The translations under genes were made by a program, and so were the position numbers. A stretch of 64,000 bases of DNA from Halorubrum halophilum (GTDB taxonomy: Archaea; Halobacteriota; Halobacteria; Halobacteriales; Haloferacaceae). Each line of letters begins with the position of its first letter. Positions within the stretch are counted from its first letter, which is position 1. Where the stretch lies: NCBI RefSeq assembly GCF_000739595.1, contig NZ_BBJP01000006.1, positions 1 to 64,000 on the forward strand, read 5' to 3'. Below are positions 11,202-37,933 of this stretch, piece by piece. The notes below the pieces were generated by a model. That model was given only the letters and a program-made list of their open reading frames with translations. It was not told where the DNA came from and searched no databases.

Positions 11202-11381
11202 ATGATGCCGACTGGGGAACCCGACCACCACGAACCGCCGATCCGGGCGACGATCGTTCGGTACGACGATGACCCCGACGAGTGCACCCTCCACCCGGAG
11301 GACCCCGACGACGACAGGCGGATGACGGAGTGGATCACGGCCGAATCCGGGTACTACTTCGCGATCGCGTCCTGTCGCTGA
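11202..11381 (+). CDS. Small acidic haloarchaeal protein (DUF7511-like)
   Basis: About 59 residues from ATG 11202, strongly acidic, with a core TIVRYDDDPDECTLHPEDPDD then RMTEWITAESGYYFAI. This Asp-rich RYDDDPDECT…W(I)TA pattern matches small haloarchaeal proteins I associate with DUF7511; function is unknown. The frame is open back to an ATG at 11160, but those residues look unlike the family, so the downstream Met pair (11202/11205) is favoured. It sits alone between a divergent small gene and the YihY protein. Confidence 0.6.
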   Translation: MMPTGEPDHHEPPIRATIVRYDDDPDECTLHPEDPDDDRRMTEWITAESGYYFAIASCR

Positions 11382-11423
11382 TGGCGGCGGGCGCCTCTCG
11401 GTCAGCGGGTGACGCGGCGCCGA

Positions 11424-12197
11424 TCATCGTTCTGCGACGACGTTGACGACGGCACCGAACAGGACCGCGAGCGCGCCGAAGTAGAGCCACAGCAGGAACA
11501 GTAACACGATCCCGAGGAAGCCGTACGCCCGGTACTGTCCGGCGACCGTCGAGTACAGGTGGAACAGAGTCTCCAGAACGACCAGCCCGACGACGGCCGC
11601 GACGGTTCCGGGCAGGACCTCGCGAAGCGACACGCGGCGGGGCGGTAAGACGTAGTACACCGGCAGCAACGCGATCAGCAGCCCGACGAAAAGCACCGCG
11701 ACGCCGACCGGTCTCGACGGAACGACCCGTTCGACGGCCGGGAGTCCGAGGACCAACTGCGCGCCGACGAGCAGGGCGAGCCCGACTCCGATGGTCGTCA
11801 TCACTGCCGTCGCGTTGAGGAGCTGTCTGCCCAGCGGCGTCACCGTCTCCGAGCCGTATATCCGGTCGAAGGCGAGATCGATCGCCCGGAACACCCTGAG
11901 GGCGCTCCAGGCGAGCGCGAGCGTCCCGACCGCGGTGGCGCCCGCGATGCCCGACTGGTCGGTGAGCGCCGCGCTGACGACCGCCGTACCCTCCGCGGAG
12001 AGGTAGGATTCGAACAGCGCCAGCACGCCCGCCGCGAACCGCTCGCCCCCGACGGCGACCGCTAACACGAGGGCGGGCACGACGGAGAAGAACGCGAAGA
12101 AGGCGATGCTCCCGGCCAGAAACGACAGCTCGCTCTCTCGACCGAGCACGTAGATCGACCGAACGGTCTCGACGGCGCGTGTCGCGTCGCGTCGCAC
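11424..12197 (-). CDS. YihY/BrkB family inner-membrane protein
   Basis: A 257-residue membrane protein with about six hydrophobic segments. Family hallmarks are the N-terminal SFLAGSIAFFAFFSVVPALVLAVAV helix, LALAWSALRVFRAIDLAFDRIYG in the middle, and GFLGIVLLFLLWLYFGALAVLFGAVVNVV at the end. Start is a GTG at 12197. Bacterial relatives were once called ribonuclease BN, but that activity is not attributed to this family now; the transport or envelope role is unsettled. It is not obviously part of the glycan genes. Confidence 0.88.
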   Translation of the reverse strand: MRRDATRAVETVRSIYVLGRESELSFLAGSIAFFAFFSVVPALVLAVAVGGERFAAGVLALFESYLSAEGTAVVSAALTDQSGIAGATAVGTLALAWSALRVFRAIDLAFDRIYGSETVTPLGRQLLNATAVMTTIGVGLALLVGAQLVLGLPAVERVVPSRPVGVAVLFVGLLIALLPVYYVLPPRRVSLREVLPGTVAAVVGLVVLETLFHLYSTVAGQYRAYGFLGIVLLFLLWLYFGALAVLFGAVVNVVAER

Positions 12198-12411
12198 AGT
12201 CGCCGGAGGCGTGCGACGGGTATCGTTAGACGGGGCGTAGTCGAACGGACGCGGCTCCCGCCCCCGGATAACGAGAGGGACGGTCGATACCGAGTCTGGC
12301 GGGGAAACCGGTCGGACGCGCGTCTCGTCCCGCGTTCCCCGTCTGTCGTCCGATTCCCGGATCGGCGGGTGCTCCCTGCTGCGTCGACGCGCTCGCGTGT
12401 TCAGAAGGATG

Positions 12412-26664: not shown

Positions 26665-28167
26665 ATGAAGGACCGCCTCCGAGAACTCGTCGAGCGCGCC
26701 GTTCCGTCAGGCTCGGTCATCCAGCGAACCGTCAAAAGCGGGATCTGGGTGACGGCGACGAAGATGGCGGTCCGGCTGTCGCAGATCCTGATGCTGATCG
26801 TTCTCGCCCGGCTGCTCGATCCGCGCGCCTTCGGGCTGATGGGGATCGCCCTGCTCGTCCTCTCCGCGATCAGGCGGTTCACCAACATCGGGATCAACGC
26901 GGCCCTCATTCAGGACGAACAGGAGAACGTCGACGAGTACCTCAACACGACGTGGTGTCTCGAGGCCGCGCGGGGCTTCCTCATCTTCGGCGTGCTCGCC
27001 GTCGCGGCGCCGTTCATCGCCGGGGTCTTCGACGAACCGAGCGCGACACCGCTGATCCGCGTGCTCGCCCTGAGCCCGCTGCTGTACGGGCTGCGGAACC
27101 CCGCTGTCGTCTACTTCCAAAAAGACCTCTCCTTCCACAAGGACTTCGTCTTCAAGTCGAGCGGGTCGGTCGTGCAGTTCGTCGTGGGCGTCGGCTACGC
27201 GCTGTACTCTCCGACCGTCTGGGCGCTCGTGTTCGCGACCGTCAGCAAGTCCTTTTTCAAGCTCTTCCTCTCGTACGTCCTCCACGACTACCGCCCGTGG
27301 CCGACCTTCGAGGTCGCCGCCGCGCGACGGCTCATCGATTACGGCAAGTGGATCACCGGCGCGTCGATCATCGGGTTCATCTACAGCGAGGGCGACGACG
27401 CGTTCGTCGGGTGGTTCCTCACCGCGACGTCGCTCGGGTTCTACCAGTACGCGTACCGGATCGCGGACATGCCCGCGTCCGAGGCCGCCGGAATCATCTC
27501 GGAGATCACGTTCCCGGCGTACTCCCGGCTGCAGGGCGACCTCGACGAGCTCCGCGGCGCGCTGCTCCAGACGACCCGCCTGACCGCGTTCATCGCGTTC
27601 CCGCTCTCGTTCGGCATCGCCGCCGTGGCGCCGAGCTTCGTCCCCGCGATCCTCGGCGACGAGTGGCGCCCGATGATCACGGCGATGCAGATCCTCGCGA
27701 TGTACGGCCTCTTACACGCGATCACACGGAACTTCGGCGCCGTCTGGAAGGCGCTTGACCGCCCGGACTTCATCGTCAAGACCGGACTGATCCGCGTGGC
27801 GTGTATCGCCGCGCTCATCTGGCCGGCGACGGCGAGGTGGGGGATCGAGGGGACCGCGCTGGTCGTCGTCGGGGTGTACGTCTTCCCGATGCTTCCGCTG
27901 GACGTCTACCTCTCGGCGCGGATGGTCGAGGCCCGACAGAGACGGCTGTACGCCGAGTACCTCTACCCGTTCGTCGCCGCCTCGGTCATGCTCGGCACCC
28001 TGTGGTACGTGGCGTCCGCGACGACCCTGACCCCGCTCGTCGAGTTCCTCGTGTTGGTCCCGTCGGGTGCGGTCGTGTACTTCGCAGTCGCCTTCCTGCT
28101 CGAACGGCAGTTCGACTGGGGGATCGAGCGCAACCTGCGGATGATCAGCGACGGGATCAGGGGGTGA
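26665..28167 (+). CDS. Polysaccharide flippase (MOP superfamily, Wzx-like)
   Basis: A 500-residue polytopic membrane protein. The opening VKSGIWVTATKMAVRLSQILMLIVLARLLDPRAFGLMGIA is the classic polysaccharide-export start, and VGWFLTATSLGFYQYAYRIADMPASEAAGIISEITFPAYSRLQ marks the middle helices. It should translocate lipid-linked oligosaccharide. Unlike the flippase at 5794 it is high-GC, so the window carries two flippases of different origin. The next gene starts 110 bp downstream. Confidence 0.9.
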   Translation: MKDRLRELVERAVPSGSVIQRTVKSGIWVTATKMAVRLSQILMLIVLARLLDPRAFGLMGIALLVLSAIRRFTNIGINAALIQDEQENVDEYLNTTWCLEAARGFLIFGVLAVAAPFIAGVFDEPSATPLIRVLALSPLLYGLRNPAVVYFQKDLSFHKDFVFKSSGSVVQFVVGVGYALYSPTVWALVFATVSKSFFKLFLSYVLHDYRPWPTFEVAAARRLIDYGKWITGASIIGFIYSEGDDAFVGWFLTATSLGFYQYAYRIADMPASEAAGIISEITFPAYSRLQGDLDELRGALLQTTRLTAFIAFPLSFGIAAVAPSFVPAILGDEWRPMITAMQILAMYGLLHAITRNFGAVWKALDRPDFIVKTGLIRVACIAALIWPATARWGIEGTALVVVGVYVFPMLPLDVYLSARMVEARQRRLYAEYLYPFVAASVMLGTLWYVASATTLTPLVEFLVLVPSGAVVYFAVAFLLERQFDWGIERNLRMISDGIRG

Positions 28168-28276: not shown

Positions 28277-29266
28277 ATGAATTACAAGACCGTGGCGGAC
28301 ATGAACGCGGACGCGCATCGGCTCGCGAAGCGCCTCCCACAGGATATCGATCTGGTCGTTGGAATCCCCAGAAGCGGTCTCTTGGCCGCGAATCTCCTGT
28401 GTCTCCACCTCGATGTCCCGATGACTGACGTCGATGGGCTCTGCGAAGGACGGCTGTTCGACACCGGGTCCAGGTTCGAAAACCGCGACTCCTTCGACGA
28501 CTTCGATTCGGTGCTCGTCGTCGACGATTCAGTGTTAACCGGCGGGCAGATGACGGAAACCCGGGAACGACTCGCGACGCACGAGTTCCCGTTTGACGTC
28601 TCGTTCGGCGCCGTGTATATCTCTTCACCGGGGCACCGGTACGTCGACTACTGGAGCGAGGTCGTCCGCTCACCGCGCATATTCGAGTGGAACATTCTCC
28701 ACCACACGAGACTGGAGGACTTCTGCGTGGACATCGACGGGGTCCTCTGTCGCGATCCGACGCCGGAAGAGAACGACGACGGGGACAGCTACCGCGAGTT
28801 TCTCAGAACCGTCGAACCGAACGTCGTCCCGAAACAGCGTATCGGCTGGCTCGTGACGTCGAGACTGGAGAAGTACCGCCCCGAGACCGAGGAGTGGTTG
28901 GCCGATAAGGGGATCACCTACGACAGGCTCGTGATGATGGACCTGCCGGACATGGAGACTCGGCAGGAACGGGGGAATTACGGCCAGTACAAAGCGTCGG
29001 TGTACGACTCGGCCGACGCCGATCTCTTCATCGAAAGCAGTCCGAAGCAGGCTGCGGAGATCCGCCGGAGGACGAACCGACCGGTGTTCTGCTACGAGAC
29101 GAACGAGATGCTGAACCCGTCGATGGTCGGACGGTCACGCCGAAGCGTCACCGAGGGCGTGTCCAAACTGAAACGGGAACCGGTACTGTTCCCGGCGAGA
29201 ACGGTCTATCAGCTCTCCTCCCGATGTTACCACCGGATTCTGCGATCGTGGAAATATAACGAGTGA
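28277..29266 (+). CDS. Phosphoribosyltransferase-HAD fusion protein
   Basis: A 329-residue two-domain protein. Residues 25-40 give DLVVGIPRSGLLAANLL, and the PRPP-binding loop is VLVVDDSVLTGGQM near 78-91, so the N-terminus is a type I phosphoribosyltransferase fold. From about residue 150 a HAD-like phosphatase begins with FCVDIDGVLCRD, then GWLVTSRLEKYRPETEEWL and ADLFIESSPKQAAEI, matching HAD motifs I-III. Similar proteins occur in bacterial capsule clusters; the reaction is not established. A TATA-like box near 28241-28248 precedes the ATG. Confidence 0.8.
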   Translation: MNYKTVADMNADAHRLAKRLPQDIDLVVGIPRSGLLAANLLCLHLDVPMTDVDGLCEGRLFDTGSRFENRDSFDDFDSVLVVDDSVLTGGQMTETRERLATHEFPFDVSFGAVYISSPGHRYVDYWSEVVRSPRIFEWNILHHTRLEDFCVDIDGVLCRDPTPEENDDGDSYREFLRTVEPNVVPKQRIGWLVTSRLEKYRPETEEWLADKGITYDRLVMMDLPDMETRQERGNYGQYKASVYDSADADLFIESSPKQAAEIRRRTNRPVFCYETNEMLNPSMVGRSRRSVTEGVSKLKREPVLFPARTVYQLSSRCYHRILRSWKYNE

Positions 29267-29397: not shown

Positions 29398-30579
29398 TCA
29401 CCGGTCTCGCAGCACGGTCTCGCCCGGATCGACGGTCGCCCCGGTCGACAGCGTCACGCCGGCGTTGAGGGTGCTGTTGATCCCCGTCTTCACGTCGTCG
29501 CCGCAGACGATACCGAACTTGCGGCGCTCGGTGCTCACGCGATTCCCCTTGACGGTCAGTCGGACCGGTTCGCCGTCGTGTCGGAGGTTCGCGACGGTCG
29601 TCCCAGCGCCGAGGTTGACGCCGCGGCCGAGGACGCTGTCCCCGAGGTAGGTGAGGTGGGGGACGTGCGAGTCGGCCATCACGACGCTGTTTTTCACCTC
29701 GACGGCGTGTCCGACCTTCGCGTCCGGCCCGAGGTACGTCGCCCCGCGAACGTACGCGTTCGGCCCGACGTGAGCCCCGGAACTCACGTAGACGGGCCCT
29801 TCGATCACGGCTCCCGGTTCGATGGTCGCTCCCTGCTCGACGGTGACGTGCCCGCGGAGATCGGCGTCGGGCGAGACGTCGCCGGCGAGTCTCCCGTCCG
29901 CCTCCGGGAGCTTCCACTCGTTCGCCGCGAGCAGCTCCCACGGACGGCCCACGTCGAGCCAGCGGTCGAACGGGACCGCGGTCACGTCGAACGACTCGCA
30001 GGTCCGCTGAAGCACGTCCGTCAGTTCCAGCTCTCCGCGGTCGCTCTCCTCGACGTCGAGCCACGGGAGGGCGGCCTCCGGGAAGACGTAGGCGCCGGCG
30101 TTCACGAGCTCAGACGGCGGGTCGTCGGGCTTCTCGACGACGCCGTGCACGCGGTCGCCCTCGATATCCAACACGCCGTACGCGGTGGGGTCGTCCACGC
30201 GGAAGGAGCCGACCGCCGGCCCCGACTCGAACAGCTCTCGCAGCGAGTCGTCGTAGAGCACGTCGCCGTTCAGCACCGCGAACGGTCCGTCCCGCAACGC
30301 GTCCGTGGCCGCGCGGACGGCGTCGGCGGTCCCGCGCTGTTCGGGCTGCTCTGCGAACTCGACGGGCACGGGCCACTCCCGCTCCGAGAGCGCCTCACGG
30401 ACCGTCTCGGCTTCGTACCCGACGACGACGACGACACGCGAAGCGCCGGCGGCTATCGCCCCCTCGATGCAGTGCCCGACGAGCGGCTCCCCGGCGACGG
30501 GGAGCATCGGTTTCGGGAGCCTGTCCGTCAGCGGGCGCATCCGAGTCCCCTCGCCGGCCGCGAGTACGACGGTTTGCAC
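29398..30579 (-). CDS. glmU: Bifunctional sugar-1-phosphate uridylyltransferase/acetyltransferase
   Basis: A 393-residue archaeal GlmU. The N-terminal nucleotidyltransferase has VVLAAGEGTRMRPLTDRLPKPML at 4-26, FAVLNGDVLYDD and GVVEKPDDPPSELVNAGAYVF. From about residue 250 a left-handed beta-helix acyltransferase domain runs through VEVKNSVVMADSHVPHLTYLGDSVLG and NLGAGTTVANLRHDGEPV. It acetylates GlcN-1-P and makes UDP-GlcNAc. GTG start at 30579. The neighbouring phosphoglucosamine mutase gene supplies its substrate. A second GlmU is at 38944. Confidence 0.9.
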   Translation of the reverse strand: MQTVVLAAGEGTRMRPLTDRLPKPMLPVAGEPLVGHCIEGAIAAGASRVVVVVGYEAETVREALSEREWPVPVEFAEQPEQRGTADAVRAATDALRDGPFAVLNGDVLYDDSLRELFESGPAVGSFRVDDPTAYGVLDIEGDRVHGVVEKPDDPPSELVNAGAYVFPEAALPWLDVEESDRGELELTDVLQRTCESFDVTAVPFDRWLDVGRPWELLAANEWKLPEADGRLAGDVSPDADLRGHVTVEQGATIEPGAVIEGPVYVSSGAHVGPNAYVRGATYLGPDAKVGHAVEVKNSVVMADSHVPHLTYLGDSVLGRGVNLGAGTTVANLRHDGEPVRLTVKGNRVSTERRKFGIVCGDDVKTGINSTLNAGVTLSTGATVDPGETVLRDR

Positions 30580-30647: not shown

Positions 30648-31994
30648 TCACGCCGACGCCGACTCGACCGCCGTTTCGACGATCGACCTCGCCGTCGACA
30701 GCAGCTCCGCCGCGGCCTCCGGGTCGCGAGCTTCGGCGGTCAGTCGGATCAGCGGCTGCGTCCCCGACGGCCGGATCAGGAACCACCCGTCCGCGGTCTC
30801 GACCCGAACGCCGTCGAGCGCGGTGACGTCGTCGTACCGCTCGCGGACGACTCCGTCGACCGTCTCCATCGCGGCGTCTTTGGCGTCCGTCTCGACCGTC
30901 GCGCGACGGATGGGGTACCGATCGATCCGCGCGAGTTGGTCCGAAATCGGCTCTGCCGCGGCGAGGACGGCGAGCTTCACGGCGGCGAGCGGTCCGTCGG
31001 GACAGAGCGTCTCGTCGGGAAATATCCAGGCGCCGGAGGGCTCTCCGCCGAACGCGACGGCGGGGTCGCGGGCCCGCTCGGCCACGGACACGTCGCCGAC
31101 GCGCGTGTGAACGACCTCCGCCCCGACGGTCGCCAGCGCGTCGGCGACCGCGAGGCTCGTGTTGACCGGGGCGGCGACCCGGTCCCCGGATCCGGCCTCC
31201 TCGCGCCCGAAGAGCGCGAGCAGCAGGTCGCCCGGAACGAACTCCCCGTCGTCCGTCACCGCCATCATCCGGTCCGCGTCGCCGTCGTGGGCGATCCCGA
31301 GGTCGGCGCCAACGGCGGGGACGGTCGCCGCGAGCGTCGTACACGTCTCGGCCGTCGGCTCGCTCGGACGGGCGGGGAATCTGCCGTCCGGCTGGGCGTT
31401 GAGCGTCTCCACGTCGACGCCGAGTTCGTACAGCGCGTCGGCCGTGACGCCGCCCATGCCGTTCCCCACGTCGACGACGACCGACAGCGACGAGAGGTCG
31501 GCGTCGCTCGCTGCCGCGTCACGTCGCCCCGTCTCGACGAGCGCCTCGCGGTGGCGAGCGGTCGCGTCGTCCCAGCTCCGGTGTGTCCCCTGCTCGTCCC
31601 ACTCCGCGAGGTCGAAGTCGGCCTCGCGTATCCGTTCGGTGACCTCGTCCTGCTGTGCCGTCGAGAACGCCTGTCCCGAGGGCGTCCAGAGCTTGAGCCC
31701 GTTGTCTTCCGGGGGGTTGTGCGAGGCGGTCACGACGACGCCGGCGTCCGCCTCTCGGGGGGCGATCCCGCGGGCGACCGTCGGCGTCGCCGCCAGCCCG
31801 ACATCGACGACATCGGTCCCCGTTTCCTGTAACCCGGCGACGAGCGCGTCTCGGAGGGTCCGTCCGGAATCGCGCGCGTCCCGTCCGACGAGGACACTGT
31901 CGGCGTCGGTCCCGACGGCCCGTCCGACGTCCAGCGCGACTGACGCGGTGATGGACTCCCCGACTCGACCCCTGATCCCGCTCGTTCCGAACAT
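30648..31994 (-). CDS. glmM: Phosphoglucosamine mutase
   Basis: A 448-residue alpha-phosphohexomutase. FGTSGIRGRVG at 2-12 binds substrate; the phosphoserine loop is VVVTASHNPPEDNGLK, the metal loop DGDADR in GIAHDGDADRMM, the sugar loop GGEPSGAW and the phosphate loop RPSGTQPLIR near the C-terminus. It converts GlcN-6-P to GlcN-1-P. Phosphomannomutase activity cannot be excluded, but the adjacent glmU makes GlmM the best call. The two genes are 68 bp apart on the same strand. Confidence 0.9.
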   Translation of the reverse strand: MFGTSGIRGRVGESITASVALDVGRAVGTDADSVLVGRDARDSGRTLRDALVAGLQETGTDVVDVGLAATPTVARGIAPREADAGVVVTASHNPPEDNGLKLWTPSGQAFSTAQQDEVTERIREADFDLAEWDEQGTHRSWDDATARHREALVETGRRDAAASDADLSSLSVVVDVGNGMGGVTADALYELGVDVETLNAQPDGRFPARPSEPTAETCTTLAATVPAVGADLGIAHDGDADRMMAVTDDGEFVPGDLLLALFGREEAGSGDRVAAPVNTSLAVADALATVGAEVVHTRVGDVSVAERARDPAVAFGGEPSGAWIFPDETLCPDGPLAAVKLAVLAAAEPISDQLARIDRYPIRRATVETDAKDAAMETVDGVVRERYDDVTALDGVRVETADGWFLIRPSGTQPLIRLTAEARDPEAAAELLSTARSIVETAVESASA

Positions 31995-32152: not shown

Positions 32153-33370
32153 ATGCAATTCGACCATCAAACGATCGACGATTCTCCGCCGTGCGGGCGC
32201 CTCTTCGTCTGTGAGCCCGTCGACCTCGTCGGCGACGGCCTCCCCGACCTCATCGTCGGCGGGATGGGCTCCGAGGACCTCCCGGTGTTGGGAGACCGGA
32301 CGGTCCCGCTCGTGGGGCGGCTGTTTCGGCGGCTCGAAAACGACCTCTTCTGGTACGAGAATCCCGGACACGGGAACCACGACGGCGACGACTCGTGGAC
32401 CCGCCACACGCTCTCGTCGGCGTCGGATCTCCACGCGCTGGGCGCGACGCTCGGCGACGTGAACGGGAACGGCCGGCTCGACCTCCTCGTCGGTCAGGGG
32501 TTCGGCGGGAGCGACATATACTGGTTCGAACAGCCGGACGATCCCCGAGAGAAGTGGCCGAAACACCTGATTGCGGACGACTTCTCCAAGTACCACGACC
32601 TCGCGTTCGGCGACGTGGACAACGACGGGGAGCCCGAGGTCGTCGGCGCGTCACAGGAGAGCGAGACGGTCTTCTACTACGACGTTCCGGACGACCCGAC
32701 GCGCTCACCGTGGCCGAGCGACTGTCTCACGGTGATCAGCCGGAACACCAACGTCGAGGGGCTCGCGGTCGCCGACCTCGACGGCGACGGCGACAACGAG
32801 CTCGTCGCGGGGACGGCTATCTATCGGCAGGTCGACGGCGATCCCCCCGATAGCGGCGCAGCCGGTGGGGGCGCGACCCTCGGGGACGCCTCCGACGTGT
32901 CGGCCGAGTGGACGCGGGAGCACGTCGTCACCGGCTGGGACTGGACCCGGGTCGCCGTCGGCGACGTGGACGACGACGGCGAGGCGGAGCTGGTGTTCGC
33001 GGAGGGCGACTCGCCGCTACTCGGCGAACACATGGGACGCGTCGGGTGGTTCGATCCGCCGGACTGGGAGGCGCATATCTTCCGCGAGGACCTGTACTGC
33101 CCGCACACGGTCCAGCTCGCCGACTTCGACGGAAACGGCTCGCTCGACGTCTACGTCGCGGAGATGGGGGCCGGAGAGAACAACGACACCGCCCAGCACA
33201 TTCTGTTCCGGAATCAGGGCGACGGGGAGTTCAGAGAGACCGTCGTCGAGAGCGGGGTGCCGACTCACGAGGGGAAGACCGTCGACGTCGACGGGAACGG
33301 TCGGCCCGATCTCCTCGGGAAGTCGTACGAACCGCACGCGCACGTCGACGCCTGGTACAATCACCCGTAA
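32153..33370 (+). CDS. FG-GAP/VCBS-repeat beta-propeller protein
   Basis: A 405-residue protein made of at least six repeats with calcium-loop-like cores: DVNGNGRLDLLVGQG, DVDNDGEPEVVGA, DLDGDGDNELVAGTA, DVDDDGEAELVFAEG, DFDGNGSLDVYVAEMG and DVDGNGRPDLL. Such repeats fold into a beta-propeller, usually for binding at the cell surface, but no signal peptide is seen at the ATG. A glycosyltransferase starts 1 bp after its stop, so it is co-transcribed with glycan genes. The role is unknown; a ligand-binding or scaffold role is an inference. Confidence 0.83.
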   Translation: MQFDHQTIDDSPPCGRLFVCEPVDLVGDGLPDLIVGGMGSEDLPVLGDRTVPLVGRLFRRLENDLFWYENPGHGNHDGDDSWTRHTLSSASDLHALGATLGDVNGNGRLDLLVGQGFGGSDIYWFEQPDDPREKWPKHLIADDFSKYHDLAFGDVDNDGEPEVVGASQESETVFYYDVPDDPTRSPWPSDCLTVISRNTNVEGLAVADLDGDGDNELVAGTAIYRQVDGDPPDSGAAGGGATLGDASDVSAEWTREHVVTGWDWTRVAVGDVDDDGEAELVFAEGDSPLLGEHMGRVGWFDPPDWEAHIFREDLYCPHTVQLADFDGNGSLDVYVAEMGAGENNDTAQHILFRNQGDGEFRETVVESGVPTHEGKTVDVDGNGRPDLLGKSYEPHAHVDAWYNHP

Positions 33371-33371
33371 C

Positions 33372-34385
33372 ATGCTCGGACACACGACTCTCCGCGACCG
33401 ACTGCCGGGCTTCTTGGGCGGGTCGACCGACGCTGGAACAGCGGAAGACACCGGCAGCGACACAGAACCGCTCGTCACCGTGGTCATCACGACGTACAAC
33501 CGGCCCTCGTACCTGCGCGACTGCGTCGAGAGCGTGCTCGCACAGACGTACGGGCCGATCGAGCTCGTCGTCGTCGACGACTGCTCCGACACCCCCGCGA
33601 GCGAGACGCTGGCGGACATCGACACCGACTCGCTGGCCGGGTATCGGTGCGTCCGACATCAGACGAACCGGGGCGTCAACGCCGCGCGGAACACGGGCGT
33701 CGAGGCCGGAACCGGGAGGTACGTCGCCTTCCTCGACGACGATGACCGATGGGTGCCGGAGAAGGTCGAGCGACACGTTGAGGCGTTCGAGGCGGCGGAC
33801 GAGGACGTCGGCGTCGTGTACTCGGGGATGAAGGCGATCCACGAGGACGGCGCCCGTGAGGAGCTCCCGCCGCGGATCGACGGCGACCTGACGAAGGCGC
33901 TGCTGTGCCGGAACGTGGTCGGGTCGATGTCCGTCGTGATGGTCCGGGCCGACGTGGCGCGGGAGGTCCAGTTCGACGAGGAGTTCGAGGCGTGGGCCGA
34001 TCTGGAGTGGTTCGTCCGGGTCTCCCAGCGGGCCGCGTTCGTCCGGCTCCCCGAGGCGCTCGTCGTCTACGAGTACACCTCGCACGGTCGGCTGAGCGAC
34101 GACTTCGAGAAGAAGCGCCGCGGCTACGACAGCTTCCTCAACCGGTTCGACGGCGTCGCGGCCTCGTACGGCCACCTCTTCCGCCGGAAGATGCGGGCGT
34201 GGGCCGCGTTCCGAGCCGGATCGTCGGCCCTGTACACCGGCAACTACGGCGAGGCCCGTCGGCTCCTGTTCACCGCGGTCGCACGATACCCGTTGGAGCC
34301 GCGGTTCCTCGCGTACCTGCTCGCGTCGCTCGGGGGCCGGTACACGCATCTCCTCGCGCGCGGACTCTCGCGGTCGCTCGGGTGA
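33372..34385 (+). CDS. Glycosyltransferase family 2
   Basis: A 337-residue GT-A enzyme from ATG 33372. VTVVITTYNRPSYLRDCVESVLAQTY begins the nucleotide-binding fold near residue 36, with VVDDCSDT, HQTNRGVNAARNTGVEAGTGRYVAFLDDDDRW (the DDD metal motif) and EFEAWADLEWFVRVSQRA as the acceptor base region. No membrane helix is obvious; the C-terminal third may be an amphipathic repeat. The ATG follows the propeller stop by 1 bp, which decides the start although the frame is open much further upstream. Confidence 0.9.
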   Translation: MLGHTTLRDRLPGFLGGSTDAGTAEDTGSDTEPLVTVVITTYNRPSYLRDCVESVLAQTYGPIELVVVDDCSDTPASETLADIDTDSLAGYRCVRHQTNRGVNAARNTGVEAGTGRYVAFLDDDDRWVPEKVERHVEAFEAADEDVGVVYSGMKAIHEDGAREELPPRIDGDLTKALLCRNVVGSMSVVMVRADVAREVQFDEEFEAWADLEWFVRVSQRAAFVRLPEALVVYEYTSHGRLSDDFEKKRRGYDSFLNRFDGVAASYGHLFRRKMRAWAAFRAGSSALYTGNYGEARRLLFTAVARYPLEPRFLAYLLASLGGRYTHLLARGLSRSLG

Positions 34386-36653: not shown

Positions 36654-36758
36654 ATGCACTGCCCTTCCACCGACGCGGCCGCGACGACGGGTCCGCCGAA
36701 CGCGCCACCCAGGTCGACTGAGGCTTACGCGGTGGCCAACGCGGTGACTCGGCGATGA
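36654..36758 (+). CDS. Possible 34-residue leader ORF of phnM
   Basis: An ATG at 36654 opens a frame of 34 residues (MHCPSTDAAATTG at the start, AYAVANAVTRR at the end) whose stop TGA overlaps the phnM ATG in an ATGA arrangement. No family is recognised. The overlap could mean translational coupling, or it may be chance. Confidence 0.25.
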   Translation: MHCPSTDAAATTGPPNAPPRSTEAYAVANAVTRR

Positions 36759-37933
36759 CCGGCATCACGGAGGTTCGAAACGGCCGAGTCGTCACTCCCT
36801 CGGGAGTCGTAGAGGGCGGGCGCGTCGTGGTCTCCGGCGACCGGATCGCTCGCGTCGACCGGGCATCGGCGAACGGCTCGTCCGGGCCGACGACCGTCGA
36901 CGCCGACGGTCGGGTCGTGATGCCCGGGATAATCGATCTCCACGGCGACGACATCGAGCACCACCGCTCCCCGCGAGCGGGCGCCAGCGTCGACGCTCGA
37001 ACGGCGCTCACGGCGGCCGATCGAGCGAACCTGCTCAACGGGGTCACGACCAAGTACCACGCGGTCGCGTTCGAGGAATCGCCGGACGACGGCCGAACGC
37101 TCCGGACCGCCGAGACGATCGCCGCCGAGATACGCCGCGAGGAGTACACCCTCGGCGACAACCGACTGCACGCTCGGTGCGAGCTGGCCGACGCGAGCGC
37201 CGAGGCGGTCGAGGGCGTCGTCGATCGGTTCGGCGTCGACCTCCTCTCGGTGATGCACCACGCCCCCGGCGACGGACAGTACGACGACGAGGAGTTCGAG
37301 CGCCACTACGTCGAGGACCGGAACTGGCCGGCGGCGTCCGTCGACGACGCGATGGAAACGCGGCGGTCGCTGGACGACGCCGACCGGGCCGACCGCATCC
37401 GGCGGATCGCCGACCTCGCCCGCCGCGCCGGCGTGCCGCTGGCGTCTCACGACGACGAGTCCGCGCGCGACGTGGAGCGGATGGCCGACCACGGCACCGA
37501 CATCAGCGAGTACCCGCTCACTCGCGAGGCCGCGCGGCGCGCGACCGACCTCGGTCTCGCCGTCGTGATGGGCGCCCCGAACCTGGTCCGCGGCGGGAGC
37601 CTCTGGGACAACCTCGGCGCGCGCGACGCGATCGACGACGGGCTCGTCGACGTGCTGTGCGCCGACTACCACCCGCCGTCGCTGCTCGCGGCCCCGTTCG
37701 TCGACACCGGCGAGTCGCTGTCGACGCGCGTGAACCGCGTCACGCGCAACCCCGCGGAAGCCGCCGGACTCGACGACAGGGGTCGGATCGAGGCCGGCGC
37801 ACGCGCGGACCTGATCGTGGTCGACCCGAACGGGGCGCCGACGGTCGACCGCGTGTTCGTCGCTGGGACAGAAGCCATCCGGACCGACCGCACCGCGACC
37901 GCCGAGCGCCGAACGCCGCCGGCCGGGTCGTGA
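36755..37933 (+). CDS. phnM: PhnM-like alpha-D-ribose 1-methylphosphonate 5-triphosphate diphosphatase
   Basis: A 392-residue amidohydrolase-fold enzyme. VMPGIIDLHGDDIEHHRSPR (metal-binding residues, residues about 50-69), NGVTTKYHAVAFEESPDDGRT, VDLLSVMHHAPGDGQY, LASHDDESARDVERMADHG and VLCADYHPPSLLAAPF are all PhnM hallmarks. PhnM removes diphosphate from the ribose-phosphonate triphosphate in C-P lyase phosphonate use. No other phn gene lies in the window, so it is an orphan here; a related amidohydrolase role is possible. Confidence 0.85.
   Translation: MTGITEVRNGRVVTPSGVVEGGRVVVSGDRIARVDRASANGSSGPTTVDADGRVVMPGIIDLHGDDIEHHRSPRAGASVDARTALTAADRANLLNGVTTKYHAVAFEESPDDGRTLRTAETIAAEIRREEYTLGDNRLHARCELADASAEAVEGVVDRFGVDLLSVMHHAPGDGQYDDEEFERHYVEDRNWPAASVDDAMETRRSLDDADRADRIRRIADLARRAGVPLASHDDESARDVERMADHGTDISEYPLTREAARRATDLGLAVVMGAPNLVRGGSLWDNLGARDAIDDGLVDVLCADYHPPSLLAAPFVDTGESLSTRVNRVTRNPAEAAGLDDRGRIEAGARADLIVVDPNGAPTVDRVFVAGTEAIRTDRTATAERRTPPAGS

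What the first reader, a model, noticed from the sequence alone, without database searches (positions are those of the whole stretch)
28277..29266. Phosphoribosyltransferase fused to a HAD-like phosphatase in a glycan cluster
The protein joins a PRPP-binding type I fold (VLVVDDSVLTGGQM) to a HAD domain (DIDGVL, later TSR and ES motifs). Classic PRTases act in nucleotide synthesis, yet this gene sits next to a flippase and glycosyltransferases. It may make an unusual ribosyl- or phosphoribosyl-glycan donor: transfer of phosphoribose followed by dephosphorylation would be a natural two-step route, as in decaprenyl-phosphoribose chemistry.
Basis: partly seen in the sequence, partly recalled or inferred. 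Interest (0 to 1): 0.55.

Follow-up and report, generated by a model that had tools for sequence, protein, structure and literature searches.

The report
Fused ribose-phosphate transferase and phosphatase
A salt-loving archaeon carries one protein that joins an enzyme using the activated sugar PRPP to a phosphatase; the best guess is that it puts ribose on surface sugar chains in two steps, with parts unlike those of the known enzymes that do this.

Summary
Window 28277-29266 (+) encodes 329 aa: a type I phosphoribosyltransferase (PRT) domain (PF00156 above cut-off; predicted fold closest to E. coli XGPRT) joined by a conserved linker to a capless HAD phosphatase closest to polynucleotide 3'-phosphatases. 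Of 74 distinct relatives, 64 keep all nine catalytic residues checked. Purine-recognition positions are not kept, and the genome has a separate HPT gene, so nucleobase salvage is unlikely. Bacterial relatives lie near glycosyltransferases or flippases (10 of 15 genes versus 1 of 18 controls). Haloarchaeal relatives as a group do not (5 of 25 versus 3 of 20), although the window's copy follows a flippase in a glycan cluster. In six genomes with several copies, 10 of 15 copies have lost a consensus residue of one domain, never of both; in single-copy genomes 1 of 36. This fits two consecutive steps shared between paralogues. Best explanation: PRPP-dependent transfer of ribose-5-phosphate to a glycan, then dephosphorylation. 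The chemistry is known (gPRT-PRP, Hib Bcs3, Cj1432), but this protein fails two architectural features of Bcs3. It looks like a separate build of the same idea. The acceptor is unproven.

The parts
28277..29266 (+). PRT-HAD fusion gene, 329 aa
28277..28696 (+). N-terminal type I phosphoribosyltransferase domain (residues 1-140), XGPRT-like fold
   Evidence: PF00156; VIA Z 15.6 to 4jls_E, rmsd 1.9, 112 residues
28367..28378 (+). PPi-loop motif P31-R-S-G34
   Evidence: R32 and S33 in 71 of 74 relatives each; role recalled from type I PRTases
28511..28549 (+). PRPP motif VLVVDDSVLTGGQ (residues 79-91)
   Evidence: D84 and G89 in 73 of 74, D or E at 83 in 72 of 74
28673..28705 (+). Conserved linker P133-RIFEWNILH-H143 between the domains
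   Evidence: W138 71 of 74, N139 69, F or Y at 136 in 72; FEWN aligns with IEQPWD of E. coli XGPRT
28706..29122 (+). HAD phosphatase domain (residues 144-282), capless, Pnkp 3'-phosphatase-like
28730..28744 (+). HAD motif I D152-I-D154-G-V
   Evidence: D152 70 of 74, D154 69 of 74
28856..28864 (+). HAD motif II T194-S-R196
   Evidence: T or S at 194 in 71 of 74, R196 70 of 74
28991..28993 (+). HAD motif III K239
   Evidence: 71 of 74, the other three gapped
29033..29038 (+). HAD motif IV E253-S254
   Evidence: E253 70 of 74
29123..29263 (+). C-terminal tail (residues 283-329), mostly low model confidence, helix 308-328; the complete viral ORFs mostly end at about residue 280
26665..28167 (+). 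Flippase (Wzx/MOP type), directly upstream on the same strand, gap about 110 bp; same order in L001, L102, L079 and L082
   Evidence: PF13440 264.6 bits
25033..26184 (-). GT4-like glycosyltransferase
   Evidence: best NCBIfam match 54.8 bits, below that model's cut-off
29398..30579 (-). Archaeal GlmU-type sugar nucleotidyltransferase/acetyltransferase
   Evidence: TIGR03992 507.5 bits, cut-off 292.1
30648..31994 (-). Archaeal GlmM phosphoglucosamine mutase
   Evidence: TIGR03990 465.4 bits, cut-off 439
33462..34385 (+). GT2-like glycosyltransferase (true start uncertain; the open frame begins at 32865)
   Evidence: NCBIfam matches begin at about residue 200 of the frame, all below cut-off

Best explanation
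The protein is probably a two-step ribofuranosyltransferase for a surface glycan. Step 1: the N-terminal PRT domain binds PRPP-Mg and transfers 5-phosphoribose from it to a hydroxyl of a growing, lipid-linked glycan on the cytoplasmic face, releasing PPi; as type I PRTases invert (recalled), a beta-linked Ribf-5-P is expected. Step 2: the C-terminal HAD domain removes the 5-phosphate through an aspartyl-phosphate on D152, leaving ribofuranose. In the window the flippase encoded just upstream could then move the finished lipid-linked glycan across the membrane. Shown by computation: both folds and catalytic residues, loss of the purine positions, the glycan context of bacterial relatives, and one-sided decay of paralogues. 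Inferred: the donor, the acceptor, the linkage, the order of steps, and the flippase link. The claim for the archaeal protein rests on homology and on its own local cluster.
For: Catalytic residues of both domains kept in 64 of 74 relatives. Positions aligned with E. coli XGPRT D92, K115 and W134 are L87, S116 and I135 here; D occurs at 87 in 5 of 74, K at 116 in 1, W at 135 in 0, while PRPP residues are kept (roles of the three XGPRT residues recalled). The genome has 9 PF00156 matches; two of the others match archaeal HPT and GfcR above cut-off. Bacteria: GT2, GT4 or flippase within 8 kb of 13 of 18 family genes, or 10 of 15 without the seed loci and a near copy of one, against 1 of 18 control stretches, Fisher p 0.0003; by locus, 9 of 13 against 1 of 18, p 0.0003. 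Pfam counts agree: Glycos_transf_1 in 11 of 93 neighbours, Glycos_transf_2 7, Polysacc_synt_3 4, Acyl_transf_3 4; none of these is among the 25 commonest families of 107 control proteins. Viral loci, without control: Stealth_CR2 5, Methyltransf_11 5, Glyco_tranf_2_4 4 of 72 neighbours. Flippase directly upstream on the same strand in window, L001, L102, L079, L082. A bacterial relative (L012) is fused to an FkbM methyltransferase, 43.9 bits, cut-off 22.7. Multi-copy genomes: 10 of 15 copies lost a residue of one site only, single-copy 1 of 36. Chemical precedent: passages in PMC11127046, PMC10299916, PMC12096443, PMC12887879.
Against: Haloarchaeal relatives are not enriched near glycan genes: 6 of 26 (5 of 25 without the window) against 3 of 20 controls, p 0.49; Pfam gives Glycos_transf_1 in 2 of 103 neighbours against 2 of 80 control proteins; some sit beside housekeeping genes. 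Of the five named Halorubrum relatives (L001-L005) only L001 has the flippase directly upstream. The HAD domain's nearest solved relatives act on polynucleotides. Two paper searches on ribose in haloarchaeal glycans listed 2 and 3 papers, none opened, none with such a finding in its title. No glycan structure was found for an organism carrying the gene. Five of 18 bacterial family genes have no glycan neighbour by this measure: three loci of one Pseudomonas genome (L130, L132, L133) and a tandem pair (L134). The paralogue test is post hoc, not corrected for phylogeny, and counts D-to-E and T-to-A changes as losses; with D154E and T194A allowed it is 7 of 15 against 1 of 36, p 0.0004.
Confidence: 0.55

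Rival explanations
1. Lipid-phosphate acceptor: the PRT domain transfers Rib-5-P from PRPP to dolichyl (or undecaprenyl) phosphate, the HAD domain dephosphorylates it, and the neighbouring flippase carries lipid-P-ribose outwards as a donor.
For: Flippase directly upstream in archaea and bacteria; chemical precedent ORF15 of Citrobacter youngae, a DPPRS-like membrane transferase fused to a HAD phosphatase; distant HAD fold rows include lipin phosphatidate phosphatases, Z 8.6 or less.
Against: The PRT domain is of XGPRT type; no UbiA match in any of the 37 proteins scanned. The flippases match Polysacc_synt models. Apart from Wzy_C (O-antigen ligase, 3 of 93), no membrane glycosyltransferase family is among the 25 commonest of bacterial neighbours; rarer families are not listed.
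Confidence: 0.15
2. Nucleoside-like metabolite: the PRT domain couples PRPP to an unusual base or small molecule and the HAD domain dephosphorylates the product, making a signal or secondary metabolite, as proposed for Ter systems.
For: PRTase plus HAD enzymes are proposed to make nucleoside-like signals in Ter systems (passage in PMC7824862); many haloarchaeal copies lie outside glycan clusters; VWA_2, a domain type that also occurs in TerF, is found in 4 of 103 archaeal neighbours.
Against: Bacterial context is polysaccharide; the purine positions are not kept; no family named Ter is among the 25 commonest Pfam families of neighbours in archaea, bacteria or viruses.
Confidence: 0.13
3. Nucleic-acid end processing: a Pnkp-like phosphatase with an inactive or regulatory PRTase-like domain acts on RNA or DNA ends.
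For: Closest HAD folds are Pnkp1 and T4 Pnkp, Z about 12; Pnkp1 is the only plausible row of the HAD profile in the PDB.
Against: PRPP-binding residues are strongly conserved and decay separately in paralogues; Pfam finds no kinase domain in the 37 proteins scanned, and no ligase of nucleic acids is among the 25 commonest neighbour families.
Confidence: 0.07
4. Ordinary purine salvage enzyme with an attached phosphatase.
For: Closest PRT folds are XGPRT and archaeal HGXPRT.
Against: Base-recognition positions not kept; HPT is a separate gene.
Confidence: 0.04

Closest known systems
gPRT-PRP dual-domain ribofuranosyltransferases (Klebsiella O4/O7; E. coli KrkA)
   Same: PRPP-using transferase joined to a HAD phosphatase, in polysaccharide clusters; two-step transfer of ribose (passages)
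   Different: KrkA's module is reported as closely similar to Bcs3; here the transferase is a small XGPRT-like domain placed N-terminal of a capless HAD domain
H. influenzae b Bcs3 (CriT and CrpP domains); C. jejuni Cj1432
   Same: Ribose-5-P transfer from PRPP, then HAD dephosphorylation, on a capsule chain
   Different: CriT spans residues 599-1036 with three helical bundles and key residues D680 and E818 on different loops; CrpP has a cap at residues 393-490. Neither feature is present here
E. coli XGPRT (gpt) and archaeal HGXPRT
   Same: PRT fold, PPi loop and PRPP motif
   Different: Positions of D92, K115 and W134 not kept; HAD domain added
T4 Pnkp and Pnkp1 3'-phosphatase domains
   Same: Capless HAD fold, DxDG, (S/T)xR, K and acidic motif IV (Pnkp motifs recalled)
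   Different: No kinase domain; fused to a PRTase; motif IV is E-S; bacterial context is glycan
Polyprenyl phosphoribose synthases (DPPRS, C. youngae ORF15)
   Same: PRPP donor, HAD domain in ORF15, flippase nearby
   Different: Integral membrane transferase there; no UbiA match here

Membership tests
gPRT-PRP / CriT-CrpP ribofuranosyltransferases | PRPP-binding transferase joined to a HAD phosphatase | tested here: met
   By fold and catalytic residues:
gPRT-PRP / CriT-CrpP ribofuranosyltransferases | HAD domain with an alpha-helical cap (CrpP cap residues 393-490) | tested here: not met
   D152 to T194 are 42 positions apart and T194 to K239 45; the model has one helix of nine residues between the first two; CrpP description
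gPRT-PRP / CriT-CrpP ribofuranosyltransferases | Large transferase of CriT type, helical bundles and D/E pair on separate loops | tested here: not met
   The transferase domain is about 140 residues, XGPRT-like, with adjacent D83-D84 in one PRPP loop; CriT description
gPRT-PRP / CriT-CrpP ribofuranosyltransferases | Sequence or fold kinship with Bcs3 or the T. composti structure | tested here: inconclusive
   Only lists of best rows were seen; no direct comparison could be made
gPRT-PRP / CriT-CrpP ribofuranosyltransferases | Ribofuranose transfer to a glycan | not testable with these tools
   needs an enzyme assay
Type I PRTase, XGPRT kind | Fold, PPi loop and PRPP motif | tested here: met
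Type I PRTase, XGPRT kind | Purine-recognition residues (D92, K115, W134 of E. coli gpt; roles recalled) | tested here: not met
   L87, S116, I135 in the window; D 5, K 1, W 0 of 74 relatives
Pnkp 3'-phosphatase HAD | Capless HAD fold and catalytic motifs I to IV | tested here: met
Pnkp 3'-phosphatase HAD | Fusion to a polynucleotide kinase domain | tested here: not met
   Pfam finds no kinase domain in the window protein or its 36 aligned relatives
Polyprenyl phosphoribose synthase (UbiA type) | UbiA-type transferase domain | tested here: not met
   No UbiA match in the 37 proteins scanned
Ter-type PRTase-HAD signal system | Ter genes nearby | tested here: inconclusive
   No family named Ter in the 25 commonest families of three neighbour sets; rarer families are not listed

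The most novel reading that the evidence does not exclude
A separately assembled class of two-step ribofuranosyltransferases, built from a purine-type PRTase that has lost its purine pocket and a Pnkp-type phosphatase, works in bacteria, phages and haloarchaea; paralogues divide the two steps, so that several transferases share one phosphatase. As far as searches show, it would be the first PRPP-dependent glycan ribosylation described for Archaea.
Probability: 0.45. Interest if true: 0.75.

Novelty: new variant of a known kind. Interest (0 to 1): 0.58.

Why it matters
If true, ribose enters surface glycans by at least two differently built proteins that use the same two-step chemistry, and haloarchaea could make ribosylated glycans. 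It would give function to a family now annotated as 'phosphoribosyltransferase family protein' with a nucleoside-metabolism term, provide a marker for ribose in glycans of rhizobia, Paracoccus and phages, and make a clean test: one apparently soluble protein, a commercial donor, two separable active sites.

Tried and rejected
Nucleobase salvage was set aside because base-recognition positions are not kept and HPT is a separate gene. No NCBIfam cut-off is reached by the window protein; one search gives only E-values and member counts for the other relatives. PHROGs give only weak hits. INPHARED phages hold no match, although IMG/VR does. A first neighbour-gene caller based on codon GC missed annotated Paracoccus genes and was replaced by one based on residue make-up (then 55, 56). 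Clustering neighbours by BLAST grouped few of them. The archaeal neighbourhood was expected to support the glycan role and did not. tRNA or integrase neighbours of archaeal copies were looked at; a few exist, no consistent pattern. L077 looked like a natural split of the two domains, but the break is an amber codon at conserved W138, not changed by table 4, so it may be a mutation or an error. The profile contained E. coli gpt itself, so its XGPRT rows are not independent; searches are cited instead.

Rows dropped before counts: neighbour lists were cut by hand before scanning: archaea 104 to 103 and bacteria 95 to 93 (one family member each, and one short ORF in L008), viruses 86 to 72 (15 rows left out, mainly all of L061 and L065 as near repeats of L064 and most of L077; one L064 row added). 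Eight single-copy genomes for which no locus was held were not read.

Paper searches for this fusion listed no description of it in titles or abstract starts; I opened passages of seven papers only (of PMC11127046 also a section). Kelly 2022 is not held.

Bcs3 and the T. composti structure are absent from the rows shown; told only as absence from lists.

Full report
The gene. Window 28277-29266 (+) is an open reading frame of 329 codons from ATG. The organism is a haloarchaeon close to Halorubrum: the five named relatives of the protein at 75-85% identity are all Halorubrum, and the window is part of contig C98 of a 3.68 Mb genome. The N-terminal half matches PF00156 at 27.8 bits (cut-off 26.3). 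It is the weakest of nine PF00156 matches in the genome. The C-terminal half has no Pfam match of its own in the window protein.

Folds. A model from 37 aligned proteins has mean pLDDT 87.3 and pTM 0.78. Its first 140 residues align with E. coli XGPRT at Z 15.6, rmsd 1.9, 112 residues. The second domain, predicted alone from 36 rows (pLDDT 95.1), aligns with T4 Pnkp 3'-phosphatase at Z 12.4, rmsd 3.0, 119 residues, and Pnkp1 at Z 12.3, rmsd 3.5, 122 residues; the first entries that are not Pnkp stand at Z 9.3. The profile of this domain finds Pnkp1 at E 8.5e-6. Motifs I and II are 42 positions apart and II and III 45, so there is no room for a cap domain of the CrpP kind.

Active sites. In 74 distinct relatives (from 86 ORFs above 90 bits), R32 occurs in 71, D or E at 83 in 72, D84 in 73, G89 in 73, D152 in 70, D154 in 69, T or S at 194 in 71, K239 in 71, E253 in 70. 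All nine are kept in 64 of 74. Of the ten that miss, four are truncated or split ORFs; one (L082, second copy) lies in an extended frame, and its degenerate PRPP motif was seen again by profile alignment. The linker PRxFEWN-HH is as conserved as the active sites (W138 in 71). E. coli gpt, fetched for comparison, aligns so that its D92, K115 and W134 fall on L87, S116 and I135. From recall, these residues serve as base, 6-oxo contact and stacking residue in XGPRT. None is conserved in the family. PRPP binding thus appears kept and purine binding lost. Purine salvage has its own gene: one paralogue matches archaeal HPT at 249 bits (cut-off 200) and another GfcR at 378 bits (cut-off 300).

Distribution. 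In the window's class 41 of 391 genomes, its own included, carry the gene; around the Stakelama genome 5 of 289 do, two of which were already known carriers. Forty-one plasmid records hold it: Rhizobium 26, Sinorhizobium 7, Paracoccus 4, four others; 31 IMG/VR loci; no INPHARED phage. In a tree of 70 relatives the 28 haloarchaeal rows form one clade (support 99/98).

Neighbourhood. In bacteria the link with polysaccharides is strong. Profiles for GT2, GT4 and flippase, seeded from four loci, ring within 8 kb of 13 of 18 family genes, or 10 of 15 when the seed loci and a near copy of one are left out, against 1 of 18 control stretches that I placed by hand elsewhere in seven of the genomes (Fisher p 0.0003). 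Two loci hold two family genes each; counted by locus it is 9 of 13 (p 0.0003). Pfam counts of the nearest neighbours agree (93 proteins; 107 control proteins). Viral neighbours include Stealth_CR2, methyltransferases and several glycosyltransferase families (72 proteins, no control). A bacterial relative, L012, is fused to an FkbM-type methyltransferase. In haloarchaea the same measure gives 6 of 26, or 5 of 25 without the window, against 3 of 20 controls (p 0.49): no enrichment. The window is one of the six: flippase 110 bp upstream on the same strand, GT4-like and GT2-like genes, and archaeal GlmU and GlmM on the other strand. Flippase followed directly by this gene recurs in H. amylolyticum L001, in L102, in Paracoccus pMARC4 and in Rhodobacter CZR27, but not in the other four named Halorubrum relatives L002-L005.

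Division of labour. Six genomes carry two to four copies. Ten of their 15 copies have lost a consensus residue: four in the PRT site (L125, L126, L132, L133), six in the HAD site (L122 second copy, L124, L128 first copy, L129, L130, L134 first copy), none in both. Five of the six genomes keep a fully intact copy. In the sixth, G156, L124 has an intact PRPP motif but D154E, and L125 an intact HAD site but a lost PRPP motif; L124's PPi loop cannot be read (undetermined bases), so that pair is only suggestive. In 36 single-copy genomes one protein is affected (L113, D152E). Fisher p is 2.3e-6; after removing rows over 80% identical among the single copies 1.5e-5; when D154E and T194A are allowed, 7 of 15 against 1 of 36, p 0.0004; without L124, 9 of 14, p 7e-6. 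The test is post hoc and ignores phylogeny, but it is what two separable steps of one pathway would give. A plasmid outside this count, L082, also holds one copy with a lost PRPP motif and one intact copy.

Mechanism and precedent. [quoted passage not shown] Kelly 2022, the founding paper, is not held. The present protein has the same two activities by residue content but a different build: the Hib transferase covers residues 599-1036 with helical bundles and its phosphatase has a cap at 393-490, neither of which is found here. I therefore file it as working like, but not shown to be a member of, that family. Whether the two are distantly related could not be tested directly.

Verdict. Observation confirmed. 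Interpretation partly supported. Best reading: two-step ribofuranosyltransferase of a glycan, 0.55; lipid-phosphate acceptor 0.15; nucleoside-like product 0.13. The largest gap is the acceptor, and the largest contrary fact is the mixed context of haloarchaeal copies.

Noticed in passing
window 36755-37933 (+): PhnM-like gene (NF011990, 407.4 bits, cut-off 233), named after a ribose-phosphonate hydrolase of C-P lyase pathways, 7.5 kb from the finding.
   Followed up: no
L125, L126, L132, L133 (PRT); L122, L124, L128, L129, L130, L134 (HAD); L082: Paralogues of the family have lost consensus residues of one of the two active sites, not of both.
   Followed up: yes
L012:7962-9734: A relative in a record titled Saccharibacteria is a triple fusion PRT-HAD-FkbM methyltransferase.
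   Followed up: partly
L077:6427-6429: Conserved W138 of a viral relative is replaced by an amber codon, splitting the two domains into two frames.
   Followed up: partly
L061, L064, L065, L078: Family gene in viral contigs with a similar small gene just upstream (methyltransferase-like by eye); a gp32-like ORF in L064 and a recA/uvsX-like ORF in L065, also by eye.
   Followed up: no
L081, L083 (rhizobial plasmids): Family gene lies between a caspase-family gene and a glycosyltransferase beside a type VI secretion locus.
   Followed up: no
L004:7107-7823 and 11233-12303: In H. kocurii the gene is next to a VTT-domain membrane protein and about 2 kb from an integrase gene.
   Followed up: no
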